Shown here: positions 30,436-60,267 of the stretch, in pieces
How the letters are laid out: each line of letters starts with the position of its first letter
Position numbering within the stretch: position 1 is the stretch's first letter
DNA from: Periconia sp. R9002
Taxonomy: Eukaryota > Ascomycota > Dothideomycetes > Pleosporales > Periconiaceae
DNA: 64,000 nucleotides
Direction of reading: 5' to 3'
Assembly (NCBI GenBank): GCA_023627715.1
Contig: JAMAHW010000075.1
Location: forward strand, 1-64,000
The notes under the pieces: model-generated
Seen by the model: only the letters and a program-made list of their open reading frames with translations
Databases searched by the model: none
What the model was told of the DNA's origin: nothing
Position numbers and translations under genes: made by a program

Positions 30436-31695
30436 GGCGGTTCTTGCAATTCGTGGCGATCGACTGGGTGAGGGATAATCGAGTAGGTAGTAGTCAATGC
30501 CAATGCACTGTTTCTTCCCTCGAGGACCCGCTAGATCCTGGGATCAAGTAAAGAGGGAAGAACCGAGAAGTCGTTTTGGATTCTCGAACAGTGAGCACGC
30601 TTGCCGAAGCAAACGACATCTTTCTTATATGAACATTTTGATCCATCGAGGCCGGAGCGAACGGCACGCTTGGCATGGCGTGCCATTGTGATGGCGAGAG
30701 GTTGTACTAAGAACAAGATCACGAAGGCCGAGTTTTTATTGGGTCCTTTTGGTGGAGCGGGACTCTTGGAAGTCTTGGGCGATTCCACACTAGACCGTCG
30801 AGAAGCTGCTTGGCAGCGGTTCAAAAGGAAAAGAGCGTGACCGTTGAGGCGAATCAGACGTTTGCAACGAACAACGTGGGCGATTCTATGGCCGTTGAGA
30901 GGAGCGGAATGCCAAGTTGTGTTAAGGCCACCAACGTCTTGGCTTTTCTGGGTGTGAAAAACTAGCAAGAGGGCCCTGGACGTCGCGGCCCGCTTCAAAG
31001 TTGATCCGCCCATGCCAAGACTCCACCGCAGGGTATCTTCCGACTACGTACGGCATGTCCGCGACTACTGACAACTCAACGAAGATAGGGTATTCGCCTC
31101 CTCAGAAAGCTAGCTTTTATGATGACTCTGATCTCGAATCAGCGTCGAGCACTCTTGCACGCGTTTCACCAGCCAGCCCTACCAGGTGACTAGATATTCA
31201 TCCGCCGCGGCAGGCAGTGCACTCCATCACCGAGAAATGAAGACTTTTGACGTCACTGTCGGGATGCCGCTTCAGCCTTCATTACTAATTATTGCAATCT
31301 TGAAGTTGGAGGTTAATCGCTTACGTCGTGTGTAGGTGCGTTTTCCCATTTTGGCATCTATTCGAAACCCCCGTACAAAGTACCCCACACATCACAGGTA
31401 CAAAATTAGCTCGATGCAGCCAGAATGGTGTCAATACATGATCAGGGTCTCCATCTGCAACGCTACGTGGTGTCTCGACACTAGACGACCAGGTACCTGG
31501 GGCCCAACCCGCAGTAGCGATGAAGCTTTGTACTCTCGCTTGACCAATCTCAATTTCATGACGACTACCTACGCTAAGTAGATCCACTGCTTCTGCTTCA
31601 TGGGGACCTTCCAAGTCCGTGGCAGCGCCAATTCCTCGGGAGTTGTGACCTGATCGCCTGCCATCATCTGCATGCCTCATTACTTGGCTTGCCAC
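30436..31695. other. intergenic, no gene seen
   Basis: Holds the promoter of the phosphate permease and the 3' flank of the small gene at 31696. A 160-codon minus frame (30531-31013) lies in the permease promoter and shows no motifs. Other frames are shorter. Confidence 0.5.
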
Positions 31696-34670: not shown

Positions 34671-36976
34671 ATGAAGGAATCGACGTCATTCAGCCGCTTG
34701 TTTTTGTCGCATTTCGACAATTATTCTCGTTTACTTGAGACACCCCGTGCGATTGTTCTTGATGGGCATAGCTTGCGACTTGCAGATGTTGTTGCCGTTG
34801 CGAGGTATATTTAGCGTCGCGACTCTGGAATATGCGCTGGTTTAACTGGATATAGGCATAACTTGGTTGCTTCTCTCTCGGAAATTGCTATTCAAGACAT
34901 AAACGCAAGCGCCGAGGCTTTGCAAAAGAGTATATCCAACGGTGAAATTATCTATGGTACTTGAGGAATTTAAATATCAGAGTACAAAATGCTGGGCTAA
35001 AAATCATAGGCGTCAACACTGGCTTCGGGGGCAGCGCCGACACACGTACTCAGAAAATCGAAAACCTCCAGCGCGAGATAATCCGAGGTCTCAATTATGG
35101 AATCCTTGAAGGAGATCGTTATTCAACTCCATCTGCATTGGTTGATCGCAACCCGAGGCTTATGCAACGTTTCACAGACACGCTTCCCATCGACACTCAG
35201 TCAGGTAACCAGATGCCAGAGTCGTGGGTCCGCGCAATGTTGCTCATTCGCCTCAATTCCCTCGTCAGTGGCGCTTCTGGTGTCTGTCTACCCACTGTCG
35301 AAACGTTATTCAAGCTTCTTCAAGAGAATATCATGCCGTTGGTCCCACTCCGCGGCAGCATTTCAGCGTCGGGCGACCTGAGCCCCCTTTCATACATAGG
35401 CTCGACTATCCAGGGCAAGCCAAACATTCTCGTCATGACCGGTGACAAGGCCGAGCGACGTGTGTCTCGAGCCGACATAGCCCTCGCATCAAAGTCCATC
35501 CCAAGAATTCATCTCGGGCCAAAGGAAGGCCTCGCGATCGTCAATGGCACCGCGGCATCCACATCCGTAGGCGCCCTCGCCATGCACGAAGCCATGTGCC
35601 AGGTGTCTCTAGCCCAAATCCTCACCGCAATGAGCGTAGAAGCTCTCCTAGGAACGGACGAAAGCTTCGACCCTTTCTTCTCCCACGTGCGTCCCCACCC
35701 GGGTCAAACCGATACCGCCAATACCATCTTCCGCCTTCTGCGCGGCTCCTCTTTGGTGCAACGCGGCGATGGATCAGAAAAATCTTCGTTACGACAAGAC
35801 CGATACTCCATCCGCACGGCGCCGCAATGGTGCGGGCCGATCCTCGAAGATTTCACCCTCGCACACGACCAAGTAGTTACAGAGCTCAACTCCGTTACCG
35901 ACAACCCGCTTATCGACATCACGGGACCCGAGAACCGTACCATCCATGGTGGCAATTTCCAAGCCAAATCCATCACTTCCGCCATGGATAAGATACGCCT
36001 CGGCACGCAGAGTATCGGAAAAATGCTCTTCGCACAGTGCACCGAACTCATCAATCCAGCCACCAACCGCGGACTCCCACCAAACCTCGTTTTCGACGAG
36101 CCCAGCGAGTCCTACATATGGAAAGGAACAGACATCATGATCGCAGCATTGGTATCCGAACTAGGCTTCCTCGCAAACCCCGTAGGAACCCACGTGCAGT
36201 CCGCGGAAATGGGGAATCAGTCTCTTAACTCTCTCGCCCTCATCTCAGCACGCTACGCACTCGATGCGCTCACTGTATTGACGCAGTTGTCATCCGCGCA
36301 TCTCGTTGCGCTGTGTCAGGCGCTTGACCTCCGCGCGATGGACGCGAGGTTCCTTGAACATTTGGAACGAGATTTGCAGCATGTGTTCCAGTCAAACCTC
36401 GCGTCCAACATCTTCGATGCGGCGAAATCTACAGCGGAGTCACCTCACCACTGGAAACAAACCTGGAAAATCTTCACAGGGCGCTACACACAACTCACAA
36501 CCTCCAACTCCCGCGACCGCTTCGCGACGGCCATCGCAGCGACCTCATCATACCTCCTACCCCTCCTCGACACAACCAACCCCTCCGCTCTTGGCTCTCT
36601 CCAAACCTGGACAGAAGCCGCGACGCAGTGGTGCACCGACGCCTTCCTGGCCAACAAAAACATGTATTTCGCCAACCCAGATGCGACACCGTATTTAGGC
36701 GTCGCTTCTCGGAAAATGTATGCCTTTGTGAGGAAAGAGCTGGGGATTCCGTTTATCAGGAATGATTCGATTGCTACGCCGAGAGAGAAAGAGGTGGGGG
36801 GCGGGGGCTTGGGGAAGGGGATGGGGATGGGGGAAGGGAGGTTGGGGATGACGATGGGGGATGTGGTGACGGAGGTTTATCGGAGTCAGAGGTGTGGTTT
36901 GCTTTATGGAGTTGTTGCTGAGTGTTTTAGGGTTGTGGATGGTGGGGATGGGGGGGAGGGGGAGGGGGAGGCTTGA
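34671..36976 (+). CDS. PAL: phenylalanine ammonia-lyase (aromatic amino acid ammonia-lyase)
   Basis: Exons 34671-34804, 34856-34956 and 35010-36976 encode 733 residues. Phase continuity across the second intron restores IYGVNTGFGGSADTRT, so the frame between 34957 and 35009 is intronic. This is the MIO-dependent PAL/TAL/HAL family, which deaminates L-Phe (or L-Tyr) to cinnamate (coumarate). The catalytic Tyr is at 78, the Ala-Ser-Gly triad that forms the MIO cofactor is at 198-200 (SISASGDLSPLSY), and the NxxQ-type region (SVTDNPLID, HGGNFQA) is intact. The length fits fungal PALs. The C-terminal segment carries a glycine/methionine-rich insertion (about residues 675-700) before VVTEVYRSQRCGLLYG. 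Phe versus Tyr preference cannot be decided from sequence. Confidence 0.92.
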
Positions 36977-42288: not shown

Positions 42289-42578
42289 TTAATAGCTTTC
42301 GGGGTAGGCAACCTCAGCCTCACGCTTGTAACTTTCAGGATAGGCGACCTCCGCTTCACGCTTGTAGCTCTCGGGATATGCTACTCCAGCCTCACGTTTG
42401 TAACTCTCTGGATAAGCAACCTCGACTTCACGCTTGTAGCTCTCAGGGTAGGCAACTGGATTCATATCGTTAGCATATACTTTGCATTGAATGTGGGGGA
42501 ATTACCCTCTGGTTTGGCAACAGGGGCAGCCGAGACCACAGTTGCGAGCGTGATGGCAACCACAGAAGAAAATCGCAT
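42289..42578 (-). CDS. RiPP precursor peptide, five Kex2-separated VAYPESY cores (dikaritin-type)
   Basis: Exons 42506-42578 and 42289-42455, with a 50-nt intron (GTAATT, CTAAC branch, CCAG), encode 79 residues. Residues 1-18 are a signal peptide (RFSSVVAITLATVVSA), then APVAKPE. Exon 2 is five copies of VAYPESY joined by KREVE, KREAG, KREAE and KREAE. The stop follows the last Tyr directly. KR is the Kex2 site, and Glu-Ala dipeptides after it are typical Ste13-type trimming sites. This is the layout of UstA, PhomA and AprA precursors, whose cores are cross-linked through tyrosine by UstYa proteins. Two UstYa genes lie next door, the nearer one divergent from this gene. Core copies differ only by silent codon changes. 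The exact mature end (VAYPESY, AYPESY or YPESY) is unknown. It is too short to appear as a long ORF. Confidence 0.9.
42292..42455 (-). repeat. 36-bp tandem repeat encoding the core peptide
   Basis: The period is exactly 12 codons. Units two to five run 42420-42385, 42384-42349, 42348-42313 and 42312-42292 (last one shortened by the stop). The first unit begins across the splice junction at 42455. All third-position differences in the core codons are synonymous. Confidence 0.92.
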
Positions 42579-43379
42579 GTTGAATAGTGATTTGATTAAG
42601 CAATACTCGTGAGGACAAAAGAATTTGTATGAGGCTGTTGGAGGTATCTCAAAAAGATGAGGGGCTTTGATCGGATAGTGACAGCATTTTCAACGGGCGA
42701 GTTACTTCAGATATTGAAATACAAGACCCACAAGCAAGTATCGGAGTTCAGCTCCAGTCCAGAACCTACAGAACATTTTGGTTCACCGCCATTGATGTAT
42801 AATTCCGAGCTTTCCAGGGGTCAATTACCCATCTGGATTGCATCAGCATGCTACAGTCTTGTTGCTGGAAAACACTGCAGAGGCCCCACTGGGGCACATG
42901 CACTGTTCTCAGTCTATGATGGCACTGAACATTTGTAATTCCTCGTGTAACCGAAGTCCGAGACACAGACCCTCTTGGCGGCACACGCTACACTGACGGG
43001 CGTTCATGTGCGTCTGGATATGTATAGAAAAAGCCGGTGCCCAGGCTGGTTAAGGTGGTGTAATAACGCCACCAGAGGCTTTATTGCAAGGTTCGTATGA
43101 TACACTCAAGAGCCGCACCAACTGTGATCCCCCGAAACTGGACTTCAGTCAACAGTTGACACCGCCTACCCTGTGGTAGTAAAACTTGTTCCCAACTGTG
43201 ACATTTTGACTTTAGGGGCTGGCGACACTCTACATTAGGTCTGGTCTGCACATGTCAGCAGCCATGTATCCTCTAGCATCCGTTTGTCCGGTCCCTAGTT
43301 ATGCGTGACAGTCATTTTCTTTTGAGCATGCTCTCTCAATCGACAATCGTGGTTTTGTGAGTGAAACGGCAGCACAACC
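42579..43379. promoter_or_regulatory. divergent promoter, RiPP precursor / UstYa-1
   Basis: 800 bp between the divergent start codons of the precursor and the first UstYa gene. A shared promoter like this would co-express substrate and maturase. I found no cluster-specific palindrome that I could support. Confidence 0.5.
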
Positions 43380-44173
43380 ATGTTTTTCACATCCAGGAAG
43401 AAGCCCAGGTACTCGTACGCCAGTCTCTCAGGTGACAGTGAGGATGGGACTCAAACTGGCTCACTTAATTCATTCTCTCGTCCAGAATTTTGTCAGCCTT
43501 CTTTTCGTTTCCCACAATGTCTTCACCTCTTTTTCTACTCCCTAGTATTGCTGCTACTAGGTTTCGCCGTTGGCTCCAAGTATATGCAGCACAGCCTGAG
43601 GTTTGAAAATCCATTATCCCTCGAAACCAAAAACCGTTTATTCGAGCACGTATACGTCTATGGGGGAAAGTCTTCAAACGAGAGTGACGCTGCCTGGAAC
43701 GCGTTAATGCCTAAAAGAGGCGGATTTTTCAACCATCCGAAGATCGCACCTGAACGATCTGCATATGCAGTGTTCCATCAGTTACACTGTCTAGTGAGTT
43801 CTTTTCTACTCAGTCAAGTATGGCAAATATCTCTAACAAACAAAAGAACGCCCTTCGAGAAGCATATTGGACAACTTTGGACGCAGCCGCCTCGTCAACG
43901 GCATTGAAGATAGAGGATATTTCATTTGAGATATCTCCAAAGCATATGAATCATTGTATCGATCTTTTACGACAGACCCTAATGTGTAAGCCGGATTTAA
44001 CTGTCGAAGTTAAGAATTCAACCTTGGGTGGTGTCACAGGCTTTGGGACTGTGCATCAGTGTCATAGCTGGGATCAATTGATGCATTGGGTGGGGGAGTG
44101 GGAAGACGTTGGGGCGCCGTCGCACAACTCTAGTGAAGGCGGTCACGCCCCTGGCCATCATCATGGATCTTGA
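43380..44173 (+). CDS. UstYa-family (DUF3328) oxidative cyclase, copy 1
   Basis: Exons 43380-43793 and 43847-44173 with a 53-nt intron (GTGAGT, CTAAC branch, AAAG) give 246 residues. Correct splicing yields FHQLHCLNALREAYW, the standard family sequence. A cytosolic N-terminus is followed by one membrane helix (about 50-70, FFYSLVLLLLGFAVG). The paired metal-binding motifs HxxHC are both intact: HQLHC at 133-137 and HMNHC at 171-175. They are followed by a Cys/His motif (GTVHQCHSWDQLMHWV). In ustiloxin, phomopsin and asperipin pathways UstYa proteins carry out oxidative macrocyclisation through the Tyr side chain. The tail is His/Gly-rich (GHAPGHHHGS). It is divergent from the precursor and convergent with copy 2. 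Confidence 0.92.
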
Positions 44174-44356
44174 TCGGATCAGTCTATAGATTCTGAAGAT
44201 TGTAAAACATGTGAATGCGACTTTTATACACGAAAACAATTTGTCTTCTTCTGTGCATGTGTCACGAATATGAATCTAGTTTCATCACGTTACAAAGAAG
44301 AGAACAGTACTAAGATGAATTTAATTTCTCGCTATAAGGTCTTTCCGCCCTATTCA

Positions 44357-45276
44357 TCAGTGAGAATGGATAGTTTCATGGATATCTTCATTCGTACGCC
44401 CGTTCAGCAGTGGGTTCTTCAATCGCTTCATCTCGTCCTCACTCACCACTCTCAATTTCGCTGCTTCCATAAAAGCATCCCAATCCACGCAACTATGCGT
44501 CGATTCGCTCACATTGAACATGGGTAGACTAGTTGTGGGATGCCATATGAAGGATGTGAGCGAGGTATCTGGCTGACACATAGCTCCCTGGCGTAACAGC
44601 TCAATGCAGTGATGTACGTGTCCTCTGTCTTCCCTGGAAACTTCCTCTGTTCTATTGCCCTGCTCGGCTCGCTCGAAAGACTCTCGGATCATTTTCTGGA
44701 GAGCCAAACTGTCAAATTGGTCGTACTTGGGTTCGTACTGGCGTCATGGGAAACTCACTACGCAGTGTAGACTGTGGAAGATGCCAAACCATCCCAAATA
44801 GCCGCCTCCTTCCGGCAGAGCTACTGAATCTTGGTTTACTCTGGCCAACTCATCCTGTGTAAAGCGCATATTCATTGGCGTGAGAAGATTATCCCAAGCT
44901 TTGTTCAAAACATCTGCAGGTTTGTCGCCCGCATACCTCGTCTGCGAAAGATTGTGGAACGTTTTTTCTGTGTAGGAGAAATCTACCGGTATATTGTGTT
45001 TCGAGCCTAAGCAAAATCAGAAAGCTGAAAGGATTTCTTTGCGACAAACTTGCCATGATTCTGATATTTGCATCGTTCACCGTCGAGCTGGCTAGTAACG
45101 AGAAGGATATAAACGATGGTGTAACAGATTATGATTCCACCATGCACACAAAGAGTGCGTTTCCATGAGCATCCATTAGATGGACTTTTGCTGTAGTTGT
45201 CACAGGCACATGAATCATAGTCCTCTTCATCGCTTCTGAACTTCGGTAGAAACGGTTCACTTTGGTTGGAATGCAT
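44357..45276 (-). CDS. UstYa-family (DUF3328) oxidative cyclase, copy 2
   Basis: Exons 45054-45276, 44759-45006 and 44357-44695 give 269 residues. The first intron (47 nt) uses a GC donor (GCAAGT..CTTAG). No GT donor restores the family frame, whereas this one yields NHGSKHNIPVDFSYTEKTFH. The second intron (63 nt) places HSLHC directly before KMIRESFE as expected. Membrane helix near 50-70 (GGIIICYTIVYILLV). Motifs: HSLHC at 152-156 and HVHHC at 183-187, both intact. Also KAWDNLL, the typical D/A-W-x-x-L region. Asperipin-2a needs one UstYa and ustiloxin needs two, so a pair suggests two different bond-forming steps or a heteromeric enzyme. Start at 45276 is the first ATG. The frame extends upstream without one. 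Confidence 0.9.
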
Positions 45277-45945
45277 TTTACCCAACGTAAAATGGTCACT
45301 GTCAACCACCTTCTCAGAAGTTAAGCAGTCCGCAAAACCTGCAAAGATACATTGGCGCCAACAACACCGTCTGAAAATGCGGGTTCCGATACCAGTCAGC
45401 CTGGACGGATTATGTTCTGAGCTTTTGGCAAGTATGGACGACTAAGACTTCGTCTGTACCCTATTTCTCGTATGATGAGCCAAGTTACGATAAGGTAAGC
45501 ACTAGTCTTATCAATAATCAAGCGCGCGACAAGGGGGCCCGGGGCCGCAATTTAGCACTGCTTAGGTCTTAGTGGGGAGCGGGGGAAGAGGGATAAACTT
45601 GGACTATTGCATACCGAAGCACGTAGACCAATAAACACGTAATATCACCAGCACGACCGGGTTGGCCCTGTGATTGGCGCAAGATGCCGTTCACACTGCA
45701 GATAGTACCCACCCCGAAACGCTATCTCAACCATTCAGTCGCAGCTTCGATTAAGAAAAGTAAAATACACTGGTACGCACGCATCCGCTTGGATGGCGTA
45801 GCTGTGCGCCTTGTCCTGAAGTGAGTCACAACACCTCATCTTTTCTTCAAGTTCTTTACAAGGGATATTATGATAGAAAGCGTATCAGAAAGCTGCATTC
45901 TTGGACCATTTCCAACCAACGAGCGAAAAAAAAAAAAACACCTAA
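45277..45945. other. promoter of UstYa-2 and 3' flank of the P450
   Basis: No gene seen. A 13-nt A tract near 45928 lies just past the P450 stop and probably belongs to its 3' end. Confidence 0.5.
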
Positions 45946-47553
45946 TTAAGCTCCCGTGAAAGCAACTTTCGCCCCATTTTTACTTTGGGTCGATAGAGTG
46001 TACTGCTCCTGGAACTCCCATACCGGATCCCGATTCTTCAGACCCTTGAAGGTTTGCAGGAATCTCACAATTGTGTATGATGCTTGTGTAATGGCCATTT
46101 GCTGGCCTATACACACCCGGGGACCACCCGAGAAAGGCAAATAGACCCAGCGAGGCGGCTGGCCATTGACCCAGCGCTCGGGCTTAAATTCCTCGGCATC
46201 TTCGCCAAATAAATCTTTCCTTCGGTGCAAACTATAGAAACTGACAGAAAAGATGTCACCCTTTCGAATGTGAATAGATGCATCGCCTGTGCTCCCTCCA
46301 CCAGCAGGCAGTGTTGTATCGCTAAGCGCAATACGAGAGGTGTTGCCGATGCTGGGGTTGAGGCGCAGCGTCTCGGTGATGACAGCCTGCAGGTATTCCA
46401 TGGATCTGAGAGTCTCGTATGTGATTTCTAGACCAGGCGGCAATTCTAATGTTTCTGCGCGAAGCTTGTTCCAGACGTGAGGGTGCCGAGCGACGTTGAA
46501 GAAGATGTTAGTAAGCGCCACACCGGTCGCTTCATGCGCTGGCAAAAAAACGTTTAGCAATTCATTGCGAATCGCTAGTCGGTCGGACGTCTCTTTCAAA
46601 AGCTCACGGGCCAACACGTAGTGCTTCTGCCGTGGTTTGTTCAGGTCTTTCTCTGCCCGTGCAATTGCGTCGATCTTAGCGTCGACAAAGCCGTGAACGG
46701 TCTTGCATGATGCCCAGAATCTTGGATCCCTAGTGAATATGTTCCACTGCGGCAGTTGCATCCTCTTTCCTAGAGTCATCTGCCCATAGTTCATAGCTTT
46801 GAGCCAAGCCTCATTTTCAGGCGTTGGATTTCCCAGCATGTCCAGTGACTCGCCGAATAACATTTCTGAGGCGGCGTCCAGAGCCATCCTGGTGAATAGA
46901 GGGCGGAGATCTACTGTTGATCCATCTCTAGGAATACTGTCAAGTAACTTTTGAACGTGGACTTCTAATGAGGGAAGGTCCGAGATTTCCTTGCGAGAAA
47001 AGGCTGGGCGCAAGAGGGCCCTGGAATGCTCCCAACGTCGTCCGTCTATACCCATAATTCCCCTGCCTATCAAAGGCTCAAACGAAAACAACCTCAGAGG
47101 CTCCACACCCCAGCTCTCGAAGTCCGTTGACATGACTGCTTGTATATTTCGGGGTTCAATCGTGTGGATTTTTCGGCTTCCGTAGAACTTGCTGGAAAAG
47201 GTAGGGCCATATTGCTCATGCAATTCGCGTATTGAGGCATTTCGCCGGTCCTTCTGAATATTGACTATTTGTGCGTATACGAAATCTAGCCCGAAAATCC
47301 AGTCTTTCTGTGGGGGCGAAGGGGGCTCTTTGCAGTTGAGCCTTTTTGACGTTCTGTAACGGGTGAATGCTCTGTATGAGACTCCGAGAATGTAGATAGA
47401 GAGTGCAAAAGCGATGCAGTACACAATTTTCATGATAGTGACCGAAGCCATGACTGCTCCTGACAACATAGAATGGCTGCTGCTCAGCATGATCAGGTGA
47501 ACGTTATTTCGAAGTTTGGTTGGTTTTAGAAGCCCAAGTCGGCAAGCTAGCAT
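45946..47553 (-). CDS. cytochrome P450 (CYP52-like group), cluster monooxygenase
   Basis: Single exon, up to 535 residues. A later start at MASVTIMKIVY (about residue 36) is also likely, as it places the membrane anchor (IVYCIAFALSIYILGV) at the very N-terminus. The K-helix reads ETLR, followed by FKPERW. The heme loop is FSGGPRVCIGQQ with the Cys ligand (about residue 475), and WGVEPLRLFSFEPLIGRGI resembles CYP52-type sequences. The I-helix reads FLPAHEATGVAL where A-G-x-(D/E)-T-(T/S) is usual: the Gly and the acidic residue are changed. P450s hydroxylate or desaturate residues in several fungal RiPPs and victorin-type peptides. Placement inside the cluster and divergence from a methyltransferase suggest a tailoring role. 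Confidence 0.88.
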   Translation of the reverse strand: MLACRLGLLKPTKLRNNVHLIMLSSSHSMLSGAVMASVTIMKIVYCIAFALSIYILGVSYRAFTRYRTSKRLNCKEPPSPPQKDWIFGLDFVYAQIVNIQKDRRNASIRELHEQYGPTFSSKFYGSRKIHTIEPRNIQAVMSTDFESWGVEPLRLFSFEPLIGRGIMGIDGRRWEHSRALLRPAFSRKEISDLPSLEVHVQKLLDSIPRDGSTVDLRPLFTRMALDAASEMLFGESLDMLGNPTPENEAWLKAMNYGQMTLGKRMQLPQWNIFTRDPRFWASCKTVHGFVDAKIDAIARAEKDLNKPRQKHYVLARELLKETSDRLAIRNELLNVFLPAHEATGVALTNIFFNVARHPHVWNKLRAETLELPPGLEITYETLRSMEYLQAVITETLRLNPSIGNTSRIALSDTTLPAGGGSTGDASIHIRKGDIFSVSFYSLHRRKDLFGEDAEEFKPERWVNGQPPRWVYLPFSGGPRVCIGQQMAITQASYTIVRFLQTFKGLKNRDPVWEFQEQYTLSTQSKNGAKVAFTGA

Positions 47554-47898
47554 GTAATTTATACATAGTAAGGCACACGAGCTTCTTTAGCTTTGCGTTA
47601 CTAGGGCTGACAAGCTACCATGCTGGATTATTCCCCAGCGACGTTTAGTGGAATCTTGCAAACACGCACCACGCCACTGGAGCCTCTTTAGAATCAAGCA
47701 GAGCTGAAAAGCGTTCGGTCCCCGAGAGAAGACGGGTAACTATCTATAGCACACATCGAAGAAACGGGGATGGCTGACATGTGACCTAAAATTCAGTTTG
47801 TGCGTTGTGACGTACCGCTCGTTCTTGAGACCAATTGACCATTTTGGAAAACCATGCGCTAACATCAAGTCCATCGCTACTGCTATCACATCAACGAA
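47554..47898. promoter_or_regulatory. divergent promoter, P450 / methyltransferase
   Basis: 345 bp between the start codons of the P450 (minus) and the class I methyltransferase (plus). No coding potential. The arrangement suggests co-expression. Confidence 0.5.
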
Positions 47899-48711
47899 AT
47901 GGTTACCACAAGTGACGATCAATACATCCTCGGGCGCAGTTTTGCTTCATCGTCACGCCTCAATTTATCCCACTTCCTTTGGAAACACATCCTCGGTTTC
48001 AATATCGACCACCGCATCCCTACATCTGGTCTTCGTATGATAGCAGATGTTGCAACGGGGACAGCCATCTGGCCCCTCGACGTTTCTTCTGAACTACCTA
48101 CCGCAGAAGTAGATGCATTCGACATTGCGCTGGATCAATGTCCACCAAAAGAGTTTCTGCCGCGCATACGAAAACTCGACATATGGAACATCTTCGAGGA
48201 GCCTGATAAATCGATGATCGAGCGCTACGATATCGTACATGTCCGACTTATTATCTTCGTAGTCCGTAATGAAGATCCGCGAGACATTATTCGCAACTTG
48301 ATGAAGCTTCTAAAGCCGGGCGGGTGGCTGCAATGGGAGGAATTGGATCTGTCTGGCTCACACATTGAGCGCGGTCCCGGGAATGATGTCATCGCACCCA
48401 CTGCTGAAAATGCTCTGAAGAGAGTTCAAAGCATTAGTGTGAACCACTGGACGGTAAATCTATCATCTATCCTCACGGAAGAGGGCATGACGAAGACAAA
48501 TCGGGATGTGTATATAATTCCTCCGCAGTGGGCAAAGATGTTTTCGGATATGCATCTTACGATGGAGAACGAGCTTGCTATGCCTTCGCCGGAGGCGAAA
48601 CAGGCGAAGTTGGAAGAGATCGCTGCTATTTGCGAAGAGTCGAAGAAGGGCGCCATCATCTCCACGCCATTGACTGTGACTATTGCGCAGAAGCCTGAGA
48701 TGGAAGCATAG
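47899..48711 (+). CDS. class I SAM-dependent methyltransferase (LaeA/UMTA-like)
   Basis: Single exon, 270 residues. The N-terminal YILGRSFASSSRLNLSHFLWKHILGF and the SAM motif I MIADVATGTAIWPLDV match the fungal LaeA/UMTA-like group, which also holds secondary-metabolite N- and O-methyltransferases. Motif II-like DAFDIALDQCPPKEFLP and the post-SAM LKPGGWLQWEELDLSG are in place. The usual GTGTG(I/V)W reads VATGTAIW, still glycine-containing. In ustiloxin and phomopsin clusters a methyltransferase methylates the peptide amine, so this is a candidate for that role. It is convergent with the following O-methyltransferase, 114 bp between stops. Confidence 0.85.
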   Translation: MVTTSDDQYILGRSFASSSRLNLSHFLWKHILGFNIDHRIPTSGLRMIADVATGTAIWPLDVSSELPTAEVDAFDIALDQCPPKEFLPRIRKLDIWNIFEEPDKSMIERYDIVHVRLIIFVVRNEDPRDIIRNLMKLLKPGGWLQWEELDLSGSHIERGPGNDVIAPTAENALKRVQSISVNHWTVNLSSILTEEGMTKTNRDVYIIPPQWAKMFSDMHLTMENELAMPSPEAKQAKLEEIAAICEESKKGAIISTPLTVTIAQKPEMEA

Positions 48712-48825
48712 ATAGCGTAATCATGTATTTTGCATGCCGTCAATTGATCTGTACTGAGTTCTAGAGCTTAAATGTAAAAACAAAACAAAACTTGTGTCTA
48801 TTTCAACTCATTTCGAGGTTACATT

Positions 48826-50182
48826 CTATGAGATCGACTGATTCCATGTCGCTTGAATTATGTCGAATCGCGAGCCTGGGGTACGAACGATGCCATCAAA
48901 ATGGAATCGCGAATCGCAAGTTCTAAAGAGGCTTTCCCAGTCGTCTGCGTCTCTTTCCTTGCCGTTGTGTAGCTCGAGCATCGACAAATCCATAGTCCTG
49001 AATATAATCAGCAATAAAACTTCCTGATATGTACATTGGATTTACTTACCGGAGACTTCTATTTAAGAAGACGGATTCCGCTCCAGGTGACGGTAAGACA
49101 TATTCGTTCAATACCACTTTTGCGCCATCTCTCAAGGCAGGAATCAAAGCGCGCAGAATTTTGATTGCATATGTGTCGGACCAGTCGTGCAAAATCCACC
49201 GAAACAGATAGACATCCGCGATTATGGGTTGTTCCTCGAAGAAGTCGTGCTCCATAAAGGTGATTCTATGTTTGAACTCGGGTGCAAGACTCTCCATTCC
49301 CTCTGCGACGGGCTTCGGTCGGTCCTGCACTACGAATCTGAGCGCTGCGTGCTTTTTTGCAATTGCCTGGCTCACGCGCCCGGTGTTACCACCAACATCC
49401 ACCACTGTCTGGTATTTGTCCCATGGAATACTTTCGAGCAGTCCAGTTGGTTCAAAGCCAGGTGCGGAATTGAACCAGCCCATAGCGTCAGCATAACGTT
49501 TTTCACGCCCTGGATCCTTACCAATCTCATTGAAAAATAAATCTGTGGTAGTATTGGCGAGGTTGAAGCTAGTTTGATCGGGCTCCTGAGCATCTGGCCA
49601 TTTCTGCAGCGCATCTACCGTCTTGACGGCTGACGGCCAAAGCTCACCTGTAACGAAACCTAGCCAGGATTTCATCAATGGATCGGAGAGACGTTTGGAA
49701 GCCGCAGTGTGCGCGACGTGACCTTTCCGCGGCTCGTGGAAAATGCGATAAGTCATTGCATGACGCAGCAGTCGTCGAACTTCAGGCTCGCTGAGCTCGC
49801 AACCTGCTGCGAGTTCTCCAAACGTGACTTCTTCTTTACCCTCGGGGAATTGGGTGAGGTTGAAGCGGATGATTGCTTGGACGCTCAAAAGGGAATTGTG
49901 CTTCGCGAAGTTAGCAGTATACCAGCTTTGCGAGAGTGCGCGTACAAAAAGCGAGCTGAGCAACCCAGTAGGGCCCAACATCAGAGATTGAAGCTCGTCG
50001 GTTGCATCAACCACAGATTGGCGGGCAGCGTCAAGTTCGGGCCCATGTCCGAAAAGTAGTTTGGGTGGGTTGTCTGCTGCGAATGACGGAGTAGGAAGTC
50101 CGTTTGATGTGAGGTGAGCATCGATCGTCACCGTGTTGGAGTGTATGATATTAGAAAGTTCGAGTATGCGTTTGGAAGACAT
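48826..50182 (-). CDS. O-methyltransferase (family 2, plant-OMT-like)
   Basis: Exons 49050-50182 and 48826-48997, with a 52-nt intron (GTAAGT..TTCAG), encode 434 residues. The start at 50182 (MSSKRILELSN) fits family length. The frame upstream to 50377 looks untranslated. The N-terminal winged-helix dimerisation domain (ELSEPEVRRLLRHAMTYRIF) is followed by the SAM motif VVDVGGNTGRVSQAIAKKH, and then FRWILHDWSDTYAIKILRAL containing the catalytic His of the HDW motif. The C-terminus, supplied by exon 2, is RTMDLSMLELHNGKERDADDWESLF, also canonical. Such enzymes methylate phenolic hydroxyls. In this setting a tyrosine-derived phenol of the peptide is an attractive substrate, but that is inference. 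Confidence 0.9.
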
Positions 50183-53281: not shown

Positions 53282-55081
53282 TTACCCGACTTTCGTCAAT
53301 TTCAAAACACACTTCCCTCCCCTCGGAGCCATGACAAAATGATCCATCATCTCCATATCCTTATCCGTCGTCGGACTCCCAATCTCAAAACCATACCGCT
53401 TAATCATCGCCGCCACACAGCATTTCAGCTCCATGACAGAGAGCCTCTGCCCCAAGCAAGCCCGTGCTCCTTTCCCAAACACCATGAACTGGTCGCGCAT
53501 TGCCTCTGCGCTTCCCAATTTTTCGGCATCAAGCCAGCGCTGCGGGTTGAAGCGATCTGGGTCGGGGAAGAAGTCTGGGTTCCGCTGTGACGTGAAGGCT
53601 TGGCAGGAGACGACAGTCTTTTCGTAGGATCATAGTCAGCGAATCCATCCTTCATATTCACTTCTCTCATAGTTGTATTTCTCATAATCGAAGACTTACA
53701 CCTTTGGGGCAATTCACTCCTGCAATGATCGCTCCACCCTCCGGCGCCATTCTCTGCAGCCCAGCAGGACCAGCAGGATGCACGCGCAAAACCTCCATTA
53801 CGACTGCATCCAATACTGGTAATTCCTTAAGCGCATCATACCTAGGATTCAATATTTGCTCATCCCTTCCAATTGCATTGACTAGTTCCTCGCGTAGCTT
53901 TGTTTGCCATGTGGGGTTATGAGCCAGCTGCCAGAAGAGGTACGTGAGTGTGTTACCTGTGGTGTCGGTACCGGCAAAGATCAGATTAGTCAGTTCATCA
54001 ACGATACCAGTGTCTGTTAGGTGTCTGGGGATGGGTCGCTGGAGATTTGCCGCTTGTAGATTGGCTCTTTCATTCACCATTCTCGCAATGAGGCTGTTCT
54101 GTCCTTCGGTGCCGTTTGCCATTGCTTTCTCGTAGGCGGCAGTGCAATACTGTGATATTGTCAACATCGAGCACATCTATTTCTTGGATAATTGCGTGTT
54201 GATGTACCTTGCGAAACTCGCGTGCGGCGTTGAGGAATTTCCTGATGCTTGGGAAAGGAGAATGTTGAAAAACCATGGAGAAGAGAGGGAACATCCACCA
54301 TACCCAAAGGGTCGGGAAGACAGAATCAATTTCCTTCAGTAAATCTGGAGATTCCTCGGTCTCTAAACCTGAAAAGCTGTCTCCGACAAAGCCCTCCCCT
54401 ATCTCGTCTTAGTTTGTCGCATTCACATAGCCATGATCTAATTGAAATTGAGGGGAATGAATCTCCCAATCACTTACCAACAACGCTCAATGCCAGCATC
54501 CTGAACCAGGGAAGGACATCCAAAGGCTCCCCCACACGCTTATCAAAACACTTGACCAAATTTCCAATCTGCCTCCAAAGAACTGGTTCCAAAGCCGCCG
54601 TTGCAGAGGGACTAAAACTCGGAATAATCCTCTTTTTCATTGGTTTATACTTCATGTCATCTCTCGTAGTAAACGTGCCCACAAACCCAAACGATTCATA
54701 CGCCGGCGCCTTTGGATACTTCGAATTCGCACTGTAGATCTCTTTCATAGCTTCAGGCGATGCGAAACATACCTGGTCCGGAGCCACGCGAACTGCTGGT
54801 CCGTATTTCTTATGCAGGGCGTGGATGGTTGCTGCGCGGTTTCCGGAGACATCGAGCAAGGTTATCCAGAGGCTTGTATATTTCGCAAAGAAGGGACCGG
54901 GGATGGGACGGAGAGGGTCAGTATACCATTGATAAATTATGAAAGGGAGGACGGCTGGGACCAAGATGTGTGTGAAGTACCATATCGGTTCGTGGTTGGC
55001 GGAAAATACAGAGCTGAGAGTTGTCTGCATCCAAGACAAATATTCCAAGCAGGTGTCACACTGGCTAAGAAGTGGAGACAT
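53282..55081 (-). CDS. cytochrome P450 monooxygenase
   Basis: Exons 54478-55081, 54208-54398, 53700-54149 and 53282-53617 all join in phase to give 526 residues. An N-terminal anchor (FTHILVPAVLPFIIYQWY) is followed by the proline hinge LRPIPGPFFAKYT. The I-helix motif FAGTDTTGNTL is canonical, the K-helix reads VVMEVLRVHPAG, and the PERF-type region is PDRFNPQRWLD. The heme loop FGKGARACLGQ supplies the Cys ligand. These features fit fungal class II microsomal P450s acting on secondary metabolites or aromatic compounds. It lies 2.7 kb from the RiPP-like cluster across the J-protein gene and next to a Zn2Cys6 regulator, so membership in that cluster is possible but unproven. Confidence 0.9.
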
Positions 55082-56009
55082 TGATACTGATAATGGAATA
55101 AAAGGAGTTGGACAATGCGGAAGACTACATAGGCAATTCGAAAGTAGACAGATTTGATATTAGTATTATCTTAGGGTTGCCATTTGTTATCACAATATGG
55201 TGTCCCGTATTAAGCTGCAACCCCGCAGCTGTGCAACTTGACGGTGAAGCTGAGGGGGAAAGGCTCGTAACGAATCAGAACAAAACGGCTAAAAAGCATA
55301 TCTACGAGGTCTTATCTCTGAAGGTTCTCCCAAATACGATTAGTCATGTGGCTGTTCAGTCACCCTGTATACGAACCTGGACTGCCCTACCGTGTAGATA
55401 CCGCAAGGATTCGAATATTCTGTGACAATCAATGATGTTTCTGTGATGTTTTCCGGTACGAACCTAGGATAAGAACGTTCCTGGGTCATTTCTTGTACTC
55501 AACAAAGCCACCCCCAATCTCTTCAATGCTAGTGTTTATTGAATTGATATGTACAAGTACACATGTACAAACATTGAGATTCCGGAACGCTTTCGGTCCG
55601 ACGTAAATGAGCCAATCGGAGGCCAGAAAGGCCGGACCAATAGAATTCCTACATATCAATCAAATGTATTAGAGCCGTAATTGCGTCACACGCCATAAGG
55701 AAGATAATTTGTGCGCAGCTCGAAGTCAACTGGATGTGTCTTGAACCCCTTATAATCAAGTTGAATAAGAACTACGTCGAGTTTGATGGAATGTGCGAAA
55801 CAATATCATGTGATTCACTCACACTGTTAGACGAATGATCTTGCTCATATTTGATAGCTCGGGGATGCTACTGCGTTCCAGACGGCGAATGCATACATGT
55901 CTGGTCTGTTCCTTGTGTTTGTGTTATGAATCAGAACTAAGAAGTATCGAAATTTTTTACAACCAGGTAGAAATTGAAATTTTGTTGCTGGAAGGAAAGG
56001 CGTGGTCGG
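55082..56009. other. promoter of the P450 and 3' flank of the regulator
   Basis: No supported gene. The frame at 55108-55425 is motif-free. Confidence 0.5.
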
Positions 56010-58486
56010 CTACATAGGTTCAGCGCCGCCTTCATACAACCAAGCCATGTCCAGAAATTCCGTAAGTGTATCCGGGTACAGTAAATCCAACTGAATCGCA
56101 TTCGGGTCCGACTCCGCATTTGCGTAAGAATTTATCACACCCTCCTGTCCCGCCATGCCGATAGGTGCGGAGTTTAGTGCGGAGCTATCTACAGCAGAAT
56201 TGGATTGTGGAAGCGATGTCGCTATCAGGTAAGTGTCATCATGCCCAGTCTGAGCGGATACGAAGCTTGCATTATTATCTGACATGATAAGGGCGGACCC
56301 AGAAGCAGAAGATCGATGACGATGAACCGAGCGCGAACTGGTTGCCGTGAGCGTCGGCGACATGAGCTGCGGCGGAAAACTAGGTGCTCCGTTGTTTGGA
56401 GCATATGCAAATTTCTTGCGCCACTGCCAAAGACCATCGAGAGTAATACTGAAGAAAAGGCGCGACTTCAATTTAATCTGTGGGGGGTGTGGGGTTTGGT
56501 GGTGGAGTTCGAAGTGAATGACCCAAAGTTGGGGCAACACCTTTGTGGCGCGACCGGACATGTCATTATCTTGGACGCAGGATTGTTTGGCTATGGATAT
56601 GCAAGCGTTGAAGATGGCTTTCCCTCGGGTGTAATCAACGAGGGTGGCGTAGCTGGAGTGGCAGACTTTAGATATTGAAATTGCGGCGGTGATGCAGACG
56701 CGGAGTAGGACGGAAGGTAACTCCTGCGCGGAAATGCTGAAGGCTTGCTCTTTCTCAATAAATTGCAGGGCGGTTTCATATGCTTTCATAATACCGTCTC
56801 TACGTAGAGATGTTTCCTCGTCCTCGAAGATCCAGTATGCTCGAAGCTGTAGAGCAGCGCTATAAAGGAGCAATCGGGTCCAATCTACTTCTGATTAGTG
56901 TTTGAAACGTAAAATGAGGATCAAGTCAAATCACCAGAGATATCGTCACCTAGGATGTTTTCAAGTGTTTGCAGATCAACCTCCAACAGCTTCAACAATG
57001 AAGTCCTCGAGACTTGAGCCACCGATGCTGTAGATGTTTCCACGTCAGACATGGCTGAATGGACCTTGTTGCAATACATTTGTATTAAAAGTGATTGATG
57101 AAGTGCTTTGGGCAACGCGAAAGGATTCGAAGCGGTCGACGCCTGTTCGATTATTCGATCAGATGTTATGAATGGTGGGTGCCCATTGGCTACGGCGACA
57201 CTGTACTGGTCGTTTGGCATTAGCTTACAGACAGAAGCAAATATTGGTGTTCATATTCTAATGTGGACGTACCCTTCTATAGCAATATAGACACAGCACC
57301 ATACTCTGACTGCTTCTCGGATCTCCTGTGTCCCCAAAGAGAGACGGATGCGAGAGTAGTGACTAAGTACATCTGGTCGATGTAGACCGGCATGCATTGC
57401 AGCTGATTTTAAAATGCCGGCCAGCATGAAAGTACTGTCTATTGGCATTGATGACTCTGGGAATGGCCATACACAAAGTATTGCCATAGCTTGTAATGCA
57501 GGTAGTGTGTGGGGAACGGTAGCGACATTTGACCAGAGCAAACTTTTCAGTGCGGGCAGTAGCGACGGGAGTACCGAAAAATCAGAATTATCATGGCGAG
57601 CAGCGGTAAAGATGATCGTCCAGAAAAGGAATGGACAGGCTTTGTAGACGGCATCGGGGACGATGTTGGGGGGAAGGATGGGAAAAAGAGGATGATAGTG
57701 TGTAAAATAGCTGCGAGTGGTTGGTATCAGGTCCTCATGGGTGGCTATACAAGTTCACGATCAGTACTTACGTTCTAAAATAAAGCTGTATTTGCTGGGG
57801 TTCCAGTGTGACTGAATCGACTGATCGTGTGACCATGGTCGAATAACTTTGTTGGTTAAATTCATTTCCACCTTCATCTTGGTTATAGGTACGCGTCAAA
57901 CCCATACCGGTGCTATCTGGTGATGTTGTGCTTCGCGACGGCTGCGTGGAAGTGGAAACCGAAGCAGCAGATGGAGATGGTTGTTGTTGCAACATAGGAG
58001 GAATATCATTTGTAGCAACATGAGTATTGGTGTTAGAAGCTGCTCTTGTTGAGCTGAGTGGCTTGACATGATCGTCCAAATCAATCAACGTTCTGATTTT
58101 ATCGTGTGAGAATTGTTCGACTACATGGACCGGGAATAATGACATGGACTGGGAATAACGACTTACGTTTTGTTACTGACGCGTTCGTACTGCGCGTCCA
58201 TTGTGCAAGAATATGACTGCTCAACACATCGATGACAAGGCTGGCCCTGGCCATTTGAAGGTACACACCGGAGCTGCATGGTTCGGGTCAAATGTGCGAA
58301 AAATTATTGAGATTGAAGCCCAACCTTAGACTGTCTACAACGTTGGCACGCGATCCGTCTCCGCTTTGCAGGGTGGTGAGGCGTAGTGTCATCATGGTTG
58401 TTGGTTATGTTTGTATTTGTGTTTGTTGTACCCGGTGGTCGGGGTGCTAACGCTCGCGACGAGAAAATACGAGTCGTTTGGCGCAT
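56010..58486 (-). CDS. Zn2Cys6 (Gal4-type) transcription factor
   Basis: Exons 58325-58486, 58167-58273, 57772-58092, 57274-57710 (right edge of the donor within one base), 56935-57200 and 56010-56890 give about 724 residues. Splicing of the first intron completes the binuclear zinc cluster: CQRCRQSKLRC, nine residues, then CHRCVEQSYSC, preceded by the basic stretch AKRRRIA. A Ser/Gln-rich linker follows. The fungal-specific middle homology region starts at TYFTHYHPLFPIL and VYKACPFLFWTIIFTAARHD. The C-terminal activation region is Ser/Asn-rich and acidic (DLLYPDTLTEFLDMAWLY, an aromatic-acidic motif). Target genes are unknown. Neighbouring P450 and lyase/hydro-lyase genes are candidates, and it could equally regulate the RiPP-like cluster. 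Confidence 0.85.
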
Positions 58487-58778
58487 TGTGGAATACAATG
58501 AGAAAGAGAATGGTTGACAAGAGCAATGATGCGACTCGAGATAGTGGCATGCACAGTATTGTGGGGTCACGGCTTTACGGCCGCGCGGCTAAGGTAAAAC
58601 CGACGTAGGGTTTAGCGACATTACGTAGCATCTTTTCCCAGTGTTGCTACTACAACAGACACCTCACCATTTTCACTGAAGCCACGGCGTATCCATGTGC
58701 GTTGAGTTGAAGTTCGTGATATAGCCAGATCACTATCAAATTGACGGAAGTGTCGCAAAGCAACTGCAACACGAGAAC

Positions 58779-59780
58779 TTACACATTTGAGTAAGCTTTA
58801 CCTCCAGCTCGCTTGTCAAGCTCTATACATTCTTGAAGCCCACAAAGCGTGAAGAAGTCTCTAGGAGAGGTGCCCGGAGGAATCTTTGTCGCGCCCGTAC
58901 TCATCAATTCTGAAACAGCTGCCGCACAACTCTGCTGTACAGCAAACAGCATGCACCCAGGATGTATAATGATTTTGAACCCCGCCTCTTTGGCCTCTTT
59001 TGCCGTGAGATTTGGCGTCACACCCCCAGGCACCATGTTGAGTAGCACTGGCATCGGCGCCAACTTTTCACAGACCATCTTGCACTGCTCGACATCCGTA
59101 GGACCTTCCAGAAACCCAACATCTGCCCCAACTTGGATAGCTTTCTGCAGCCTTTCTAACGCGTCATCGAACCCATTGGTCTGAAGTGCGTCCGTCCGCG
59201 CTATCAACACAATATCTCCAGCTTCACCCAAAGCTTCTTTCATCTCTTCCCTCGCTATCACAGCTGCACGGATCCTGGAGATAAAAGTATCTTGGTCAAC
59301 TACTTCTTTGCCGAAAAGGTGCCCGCAGCGCTTCGAAACTACTTGGTCTTCTAGATGCAAGCCCGCCACACCGCCCGCAATGTATGATTTAACAGTGCGG
59401 GAGATCATGAGGGGTCCGCCATAGCCTGTATCTGCGTCCGCGATCAATGGAATCGTTCTATCGAGTGATGCGATCATGGCCGCGTTGACCGCCATATCGT
59501 TCATCGTCACGACGCCGAGATCAGGCATCCCAAGCCGTGAAGCTGCAGTGCCTGCACCAGTCTCTATCAAGTCAGCATTTGGCGAACACTTGCTGTTTTG
59601 GAAAGTGATGCGCACCATGTAGAGGCACTCAAACCCCTCTCTCAACGCAACTCGAGCAGTGATCCCGTCGTAAACACCCGGGCAGACAGTGATGTGGTCC
59701 TCTCGACTAAGGAGCTCTCGCAGTCGAGCAGCAGCCGCTAGGGGGACTAGCGTATTCGTTCCATTCCTGTCGTCATACAT
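58779..59780 (-). CDS. isocitrate lyase / PEP mutase family lyase (methylisocitrate- or alkylmalate-lyase-like)
   Basis: Exons 59616-59780 and 58779-59561 give 315 residues. The 54-nt intron (GTGCGC..GATAGAG) is in frame with no stop, so it would be translated in a naive call. Its removal restores ECLYMTGAGTAASRLGMPDLG, the family's standard text. Motifs: PGVYDGITARVA, metal-binding DADTGYGGP, HLEDQV, and the catalytic-Cys loop KRCGHLFGKEVV. RTDAL and FLEGPTD are also present. The superfamily cleaves C-C bonds of 2-methylisocitrate, 2,3-dimethylmalate, oxaloacetate and similar acids to pyruvate or glyoxylate plus an acid. A lysine/arginine-rich KRCGH loop points to a lyase, not a phosphonomutase. 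It is divergent from an aconitase-family gene across 487 bp, which strengthens a pathway link. Confidence 0.88.
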   Translation of the reverse strand: MYDDRNGTNTLVPLAAAARLRELLSREDHITVCPGVYDGITARVALREGFECLYMVRITFQNSKCSPNADLIETGAGTAASRLGMPDLGVVTMNDMAVNAAMIASLDRTIPLIADADTGYGGPLMISRTVKSYIAGGVAGLHLEDQVVSKRCGHLFGKEVVDQDTFISRIRAAVIAREEMKEALGEAGDIVLIARTDALQTNGFDDALERLQKAIQVGADVGFLEGPTDVEQCKMVCEKLAPMPVLLNMVPGGVTPNLTAKEAKEAGFKIIIHPGCMLFAVQQSCAAAVSELMSTGATKIPPGTSPRDFFTLCGLQECIELDKRAGGKAYSNV

Positions 59781-60267
59781 TGTTTGTGGGTGTAGAAGCA
59801 ATAGACGTGCTGATGATATGCAAAATGCTTGGACACGAATTGCATTGATGTTAAAGCAGGAAAGTGATAAAAACCGTCGACTTTCAGAATCTTTCAAAGG
59901 AGATCATGCGACCAGATTGGGAGATTTTAACGGCCTCCGATGAAAGTATTATTGCCCCGAGGTAAGTGATGGTAGTCAATTATATATGTATCGATCGCAG
60001 CACAGATTGGCTCTGCAAGAACGACTCCGATTGGTCGAAATCCAACTCCCCGATTGGCTCCACCCGCACCACGAGGCCGAAGTGCCACTCCCGATTACTC
60101 CACGTTCTGAGGAAAAACAAGCTTCAAAAGCGGCGGTTACAACATCATGCTTTATTGAGTGATGATTGTATTTAAGGTGCTGTCTTCGTCTTCTCGGTGT
60201 CATTTCATTCGGCGATCAATCTCCTCTACGACACTTAGCAACATCGTTGGCCTAATATTCATTAAGA
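59781..60267. promoter_or_regulatory. divergent promoter, lyase / aconitase-family hydro-lyase
   Basis: 487 bp between divergent start codons with several CCAAT-type boxes (ATTGG on the plus strand near 60031-60059). No coding potential of its own. It likely co-regulates the two enzymes. Confidence 0.55.

What the first reader, a model, noticed from the sequence alone, without database searches (positions are those of the whole stretch)
42289..50182. Candidate dikaritin-type RiPP biosynthetic gene cluster
Seen: a secreted precursor with five Kex2-bounded identical repeats, two UstYa/DUF3328 proteins with both HxxHC motifs, a P450 and two SAM methyltransferases, contiguous over 8 kb, with divergent gene pairs sharing promoters. 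Known: this combination defines the ustiloxin, phomopsin and asperipin pathways, in which UstYa proteins cyclise short Tyr-containing peptides. Inference: the locus makes a cyclised, perhaps O- and N-methylated, Tyr-Pro-Glu-Ser-Tyr peptide. I do not recognise this core among published dikaritins.
Basis: partly seen in the sequence, partly recalled or inferred. Interest (0 to 1): 0.95.

Follow-up and report, generated by a model that had tools for sequence, protein, structure and literature searches.

The report
Fungal modified-peptide (dikaritin-type) gene cluster
A fungus carries a small gene cluster that probably cuts a short tyrosine-containing peptide out of a repeated precursor and modifies it with copper enzymes; clusters of this kind are known, this peptide seems to be a new one.

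Summary
Window 42289-50182 carries a spliced 79-aa secreted precursor with five identical VAYPESY cores, two UstYa (PF11807/DUF3328) proteins with both HxxHC motifs, a P450, an O-methyltransferase (OMT) and a weakly classified second methyltransferase. All seven core codons vary between copies, only synonymously. Relatives of the precursor exist in Bimuria, Byssothecium, Lophiotrema and a metagenome. Precursor and UstYa appear to share a contig in Byssothecium, UstYa and OMT in Melanomma; precursor-OMT linkage was not seen elsewhere. No tyrosinase lies on this contig. Best reading: a new tyrosinase-free, dikaritin-like RiPP cluster, a known and common kind. The peptide is then more likely EVAYPESY or AYPESY than YPESY. 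Cyclisation, methylation and function are inferred, not shown. The genome has a separate pheromone-like precursor.

The parts
42289..42578 (-). precursor gene (exons 42506-42578 and 42289-42455), 79 aa: signal-like N-terminus and five VAYPESY cores separated by four KR sites
   Evidence: gene model; hydropathy; one copy in the genome; relatives
42456..42505 (-). 50-nt GT-AG intron with GCTAAC branch-like sequence
   Evidence: only one of the listed splice choices that keeps the signal-like N-terminus and all five whole cores; not checked against transcripts
42292..42456 (-). the five core copies (42436-42456, 42400-42420, 42364-42384, 42328-42348, 42292-42312) with KR-E-x-x-V spacers; the contiguous genomic match of the first copy includes one intron-side base that matches the spliced codon
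43380..44173 (+). UstYa1 (DUF3328), 246 aa, exons 43380-43793 and 43847-44173, HQLHC and HMNHC, one hydrophobic segment near residue 47
   Evidence: (PF11807, 91.8 bits)
44357..45276 (-). UstYa2 (DUF3328), 269 aa, three exons (45276-45054, 45006-44759, 44695-44357), HSLHC and HVHHC, one hydrophobic segment near residue 42; the first intron would be of the GC-AG kind
   Evidence: (PF11807, 129.6 bits)
45946..47490 (-). cytochrome P450, 514 aa, single exon
   Evidence: (PF00067, 204.1 bits); linkage in other genomes not tested
47899..48711 (+). putative SAM methyltransferase, 270 aa
   Evidence: Methyltransf_12, 24.4 bits, below the cut-off of 30; no solved relative by sequence at E 0.01; linkage not tested
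48826..50182 (-). O-methyltransferase (Methyltransf_2), 434 aa, exons 50182-49050 and 48997-48826
   Evidence: (PF00891, 97.7 bits)

Best explanation
A dikaritin-like (UstYa/DUF3328) RiPP biosynthetic cluster without a tyrosinase. Likely course: the precursor enters the secretory pathway; Kex2 cuts after each KR and Kex1 removes the KR; a STE13-type dipeptidyl aminopeptidase trims the X-Ala/X-Pro dipeptides, leaving EVAYPESY (GVAYPESY from copy 3, possibly an untrimmed form of copy 2) or, if the last EV/GV pair also goes, AYPESY. The two membrane-anchored UstYa proteins, binuclear copper oxidases by analogy with CctR, oxidise the peptide in the Golgi lumen, most likely linking a Tyr side chain into a ring. 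P450, OMT and MT may add oxygen and methyl groups. Shown here: genes, motifs, repeats, selection on the core, relatives. Inferred: every processing and chemical step, and membership of P450, MT and OMT in the pathway.
For: Precursor architecture and single copy. All 7 core codons vary at the third base only: 44 synonymous and 0 non-synonymous differences summed over 10 pairs of copies; about 21% of random single changes would be synonymous. Four relatives of the precursor keep AYPESY or close forms. Melanomma: UstYa P0010 (47%) and OMT P0018 (69%) both list 51,263. Equal length taken as same contig is inference. Both UstYa keep both HxxHC motifs, which in CctR bind two copper ions and are needed for activity (PMC12435403). 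1758 of 7878 repeat precursors in a 1461-strain survey lie near DUF3328 genes, most often next to them (PMC7329392 passages). One Kex2-type P_proprotein match and two full-length DPPIV_N matches in the genome.
Against: No tyrosinase on the contig; no peptidase or transporter beside the precursor among the 28 reading frames scanned with Pfam. The best 120 of 940 OMT relatives include none named Byssothecium or Bimuria, and the Lophiotrema one (P0135) lies on a contig of another length than its precursor, so the OMT may be optional or not part of the pathway. P450 and MT linkage untested. No shared promoter motif. DUF3328 enzymes also hydroxylate or halogenate, so a ring need not form. No transcripts or chemistry. 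The structure model of a relative (P0006) was too poor to use (pLDDT 49.1).
Confidence: 0.82

Rival explanations
1. The precursor makes a linear secreted signalling peptide, pheromone- or hormone-like, trimmed by Kex2, Kex1 and STE13, and the UstYa genes next to it serve something else.
For: STE13-like spacers: the first dipeptide after KR/KW is XA or XP in 13 of 15 spacers, and 14 of 15 spacers are even in length. PMC6339444 holds that STE13 signatures mark hormone-like peptides and are absent from ascomycete cyclic-peptide precursors (passages). No PYGxPxG-type pheromone was found by pattern.
Against: Two UstYa genes are the nearest genes on one side, and precursor plus UstYa appear linked in Byssothecium. 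A separate repeat precursor at C90 (one GCRFVGQPC unit and eight RRFVGQPA units, KR[ED]AE(A/E)P spacers) looks like the alpha pheromone, judged by resemblance that I recall. Another UstYa-flanked precursor in this genome (C60) also has DA-type spacers, so the signature does not exclude a RiPP.
Confidence: 0.12
2. Two neighbouring units: a small RiPP unit of precursor, UstYa1 and UstYa2, and an unrelated P450/MT/OMT unit with another substrate.
For: The OMT was not found with the precursor in Byssothecium, Bimuria or Lophiotrema within the listed hits; no shared promoter motif; a 669-bp gap lies between UstYa2 and the P450.
Against: UstYa and OMT appear to share a 51-kb contig in Melanomma; in lichen Clan R1 an OMT lies between two UstYa-type genes (PMC12048977 passages).
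Confidence: 0.25
3. The cluster is degenerate or silent and makes nothing.
For: No expression data.
Against: Gene models are open with both motif pairs intact and the core copies show only synonymous change.
Confidence: 0.05

Closest known systems
Ustiloxin / phomopsin (core dikaritins)
   Same: Secreted Kex2-processed repeat precursor, several UstYa proteins, a methyltransferase, Tyr-containing core
   Different: Cores YAIG/YVIG and YVIP (PMC7329392) against AYPESY; no tyrosinase on this contig; STE13-like spacers, which PMC6339444 says those precursors lack; a P450 and an OMT are present
Asperipin-2a
   Same: Repeat precursor with UstYa; rings from Tyr side chains, two internal ones (PMC9233826 passage); functional without every gene of Ding's list (PMC12048977 passage)
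   Different: One DUF3328 protein there against two here; P450 and two methyltransferases here; another core
Victorin (Cochliobolus victoriae)
   Same: A RiPP of an ascomycete with repeat precursor and likely Kex2 processing (PMC9233826 passage)
   Different: Cyclised between C-terminal Phe and an internal Leu and chlorinated; another core; no sequence comparison made
Lichen Clan R1 UstYa clusters
   Same: Two UstYa-type genes with an OMT and a SAM-MT (PMC12048977 passages)
   Different: They have a tyrosinase and no recognised repeat precursor; here the repeat precursor is clear and no tyrosinase lies on the contig
Ascomycete alpha-pheromone precursors
   Same: KR-[ED]A repeat architecture with STE13 signature (PMC6339444 passages)
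   Different: AYPESY is unlike the Pleosporales PYGxPxG pheromones; two UstYa neighbours; a separate pheromone-like gene exists

Membership tests
Dikaritin (class-defining enzyme DUF3328, Montalban-Lopez 2021 as cited in PMC12048977) | DUF3328/UstYa protein | tested here: met
   PF11807 over cut-off for both proteins; both HxxHC motifs in each
Dikaritin (Ding et al. list as cited in PMC12048977) | precursor with N-terminal leader and repeated cores | tested here: met
Dikaritin (Ding et al. list) | multiple DUF3328 proteins | tested here: met
   two
Dikaritin (Ding et al. list) | methyltransferase | tested here: met
   PF00891 OMT over cut-off; second MT below cut-off; whether they act on the peptide is unknown
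Dikaritin (Ding et al. list) | tyrosinase in the cluster | tested here: not met
   32 PF00264 matches in the genome, none on C75
Dikaritin (Ding et al. list) | transporter or peptidase in the cluster | tested here: inconclusive
   none beside the precursor among 28 frames scanned; a PHO4 phosphate transporter lies 12 kb away (29116-30543) and is not counted; intron-split or short genes could be missed
Dikaritin | UstYa-dependent side-chain ring in the product | not testable with these tools
   needs chemistry
Kex2-processed repeat protein (KEP) | secreted protein with repeats separated by Kex2 sites | tested here: met
   five cores, four KR sites; signal peptide judged by hydropathy only
Ascomycete alpha pheromone | STE13 XA/XP dipeptides after the Kex2 site | tested here: met
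   13 of 15 spacers over five precursors; 3 of 4 in the window's own
Ascomycete alpha pheromone | known pheromone sequence type | tested here: not met
   AYPESY has neither PYGxPxG nor the paired cysteines described in PMC6339444
Ascomycete alpha pheromone | no DUF3328 gene in the vicinity | tested here: not met
   two adjacent UstYa genes; PMC7329392 reports three exceptions among annotated pheromones

The most novel reading that the evidence does not exclude
A pheromone-style precursor (Kex2, Kex1 and STE13 trimming) whose short Tyr-ended peptide is then modified by a pair of UstYa copper enzymes, conserved across several Pleosporales: a cyclised signalling peptide or a living intermediate between the alpha-pheromone route and toxin-type RiPPs, as two published hypotheses would predict (PMC7329392, PMC9233826).
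Probability: 0.25. Interest if true: 0.72.

Novelty: new member of a known kind. Interest (0 to 1): 0.48.

Why it matters
It gives a clear precursor, two intact UstYa enzymes and a strictly conserved core, so enzyme and substrate can be paired directly, which is the missing piece in many UstYa clusters (PMC12048977 found no repeat precursor in its two lichen clans). The STE13-like spacers bear on the open question, raised in PMC9233826 and PMC7329392, whether fungal RiPPs arose from pheromone precursors.

Tried and rejected
Alpha-pheromone reading: tested with a PYGxPxG codon pattern (0 matches, 3 for the reversed control) and a looser one (12 matches against 15 control), both at chance level; a KR[ED][AP][ED][AP] pattern gave 45 matches (control 26), with clusters only at C90 (8) and C60 (4), plus a pair at C42 that I did not look into. 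C90 reads as a pheromone-like repeat protein.

Shared promoter motif: none above shuffles for 7- to 9-mers in four promoter stretches. Structure prediction of the UstYa2 relative P0006 with ten sequences: mean pLDDT 49.1, pTM 0.25, unusable, so no fold search was made (repeat it). UstYa2 has no solved relative by sequence (best E 0.64); the MT none at E 0.01; the P450 matches 132 distinct chains at E 1e-20 or better, which only says it is a P450. Linkage of P450, MT and UstYa1 in other genomes was not tested: the three protein searches went to precursor, UstYa2 and OMT.

Literature: 8 of 10 searches used. 'YPESY' inside words is held by 29 papers, 20 listed; no listed title concerns a fungal peptide, nine were not listed. 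The KEP catalogues of PMC6339444 and PMC7329392 sit in supplements that could not be read here, so this core may already be tabulated there. Papers seen: passages of PMC6339444, PMC7329392, PMC12048977, PMC9632046, PMC9233826; parts 1 and 2 of 3 of PMC12435403; the rest as listings only.
Full report
What is there. The six genes lie at 42289-50182 as described. By hand model the precursor has two exons. Its intron is 50 nt, GT-AG, with GCTAAC 21 to 16 bases before the AG end. The protein is MRFSSVVAITLATVVSAAPVAKPE followed by five VAYPESY cores joined by KREVE, KREAG, KREAE and KREAE. There are four KR sites, not one on both sides of every core. The degenerate core pattern is found 5 times in the window and never in 100 shuffles. 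The genome of 42.9 Mb in 267 contigs holds only this copy.

Enzymes. UstYa1 (246 aa) and UstYa2 (269 aa) pass the PF11807 cut-off (91.8 and 129.6 bits against 25). Each has one strong hydrophobic segment and two HxxHC motifs. The P450 and the OMT pass their cut-offs; the other methyltransferase does not. In CctR, a DUF3328 protein, the paired HxxHC motif holds two copper ions, uses O2, and loses activity when those residues are changed (PMC12435403 parts 1 and 2). That the two UstYa proteins here work the same way is inference from the motif.

Selection. In the five cores every codon differs between copies, always at the third base. Summed over the 10 pairs there are 44 synonymous differences over 56.7 sites and none over 153.3 non-synonymous sites. 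If changes fell at random, about 21% would be synonymous; seven of seven variable columns being so has a nominal probability of 1.6e-5. Copies within a gene are not independent, so this is a guide only. The spacers do vary (EVE, EAG, EAE).

Relatives. The precursor search gave four proteins of 734 candidates: Bimuria novae-zelandiae (53%), Byssothecium circinans (68%), a JGI metagenome protein (76% over 49% of the query) and Lophiotrema nucula (55% over 65%). The UstYa2 search gave 12 of 183 candidates, among them Parastagonospora nodorum (55%), Byssothecium (54% over 58%) and Melanomma pulvis-pyrius (47% over 58%). The OMT search gave 940, of which 120 are listed: Melanomma 69%, P. nodorum 65%, an unnamed assembly 83%, and many lichen fungi at 44-51%. 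Contig lengths coincide for precursor and UstYa in Byssothecium (1,060,273) and for UstYa and OMT in Melanomma (51,263). I take equal lengths as the same contig; distance on the 1-Mb contig is unknown. Against a fixed six-gene set: no Byssothecium or Bimuria OMT is in the listed 120, and the Lophiotrema OMT is on a contig of another length (1,870,134) than its precursor (1,316,291). The named relatives are mostly Pleosporales, so the host is probably one (inference); it is unnamed.

Trimming. I tabulated the residues between each KR (or KW) and the following core in five precursors. Of 15 spacers, 14 are even in length (4, 4, 4, 4, 4, 4, 4, 4, 4, 10, 4, 8, 6, 4; one of 5), and 13 of 15 begin with an XA or XP dipeptide. 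Units with a broken core were dropped by the search pattern; one of them, the last of Byssothecium (AANGNEV before AYP), is odd and counts against the rule, and the last Bimuria unit has no comparable core. In the window's own precursor three of four spacers begin with EA and one with EV. The stretch before the first core also reads as AP-VA-KP-EV. This is the STE13 signature of alpha pheromones. PMC6339444 says it is generally reserved for them in Ascomycota and absent from precursors of ustiloxin-type peptides and epichloecyclins (passages). PMC7329392 reports that 17 of 76 KEPs related to STE13-bearing basidiomycete proteins do lie near DUF3328 genes (passage), so the pairing is not without precedent. 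The genome encodes one Kex2-type protein and two full-length DPPIV_N proteins. The predicted peptide is then EVAYPESY, or AYPESY if the last pair is also removed.

Same genome, other loci. PF11807 gave 61 matches, which I group by hand into 34 places, the window included. I fetched 10-kb stretches at 20 of the other 33. A repeat scan found a Kex2-type repeat protein in 2 of the 20: C60, WYDITYID between two UstYa genes, with DA-type spacers, and C100, nine units of TN[IS]YPGV[KR]YPGD, without them. Three other stretches were flagged only for low-complexity repeats. The scan needs three or more exact 5-mer copies in one frame, so it misses others.

Pheromone question. C90 encodes one GCRFVGQPC and eight RRFVGQPA units with KR[ED]AE spacers. 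Its likeness to two-cysteine alpha pheromones is my reading. This makes it less likely that the YPESY gene is the mating pheromone, but does not exclude another signalling role.

What it is called. By the current class definition (DUF3328 as class-defining enzyme, as cited in PMC12048977) the locus is a dikaritin-type cluster. By the older five-part list it fails on the tyrosinase and is open on transporter or peptidase. Such clusters are common: 22% of 7878 KEPs lie near DUF3328 genes, and nine dikaritin clusters were reported in Venturia inaequalis (PMC9632046 passage). I therefore file it as a new member of a known kind. What is less usual is the STE13 signature and the OMT and P450 next to a clear repeat precursor.

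Interest.

Noticed in passing
G000:C60:46046-46405 (L022 5046-5405, minus): Repeat precursor WYDITYID with KKRDADA-type spacers between two UstYa genes in the same genome: a second candidate RiPP locus.
   Followed up: partly
G000:C100:88989-89663 (L028 3489-4163, minus): Repeat precursor with nine TN[IS]YPGV[KR]YPGD units among several UstYa matches.
   Followed up: no
G000:C90:113901-114900 (L042): Pheromone-like repeat precursor in which only the first unit (GCRFVGQPC) keeps two cysteines; eight others read RRFVGQPA.
   Followed up: partly
G000:C42:207619-207701: Two KREAEA-type coding matches 66 bases apart, perhaps another repeat precursor.
   Followed up: no
window 53682-62871: P450, Fungal_trans regulator, PEP-mutase/ICL-family protein and an aconitase-family protein in several exons lie together; perhaps another metabolic cluster.
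   Followed up: no
window 34946-36976: Aromatic amino acid lyase (PF00221, 452.9 bits), 5 kb left of the precursor.
   Followed up: no
window 9917-12043: HET-domain protein (PF06985).
   Followed up: no
   Followed up: no
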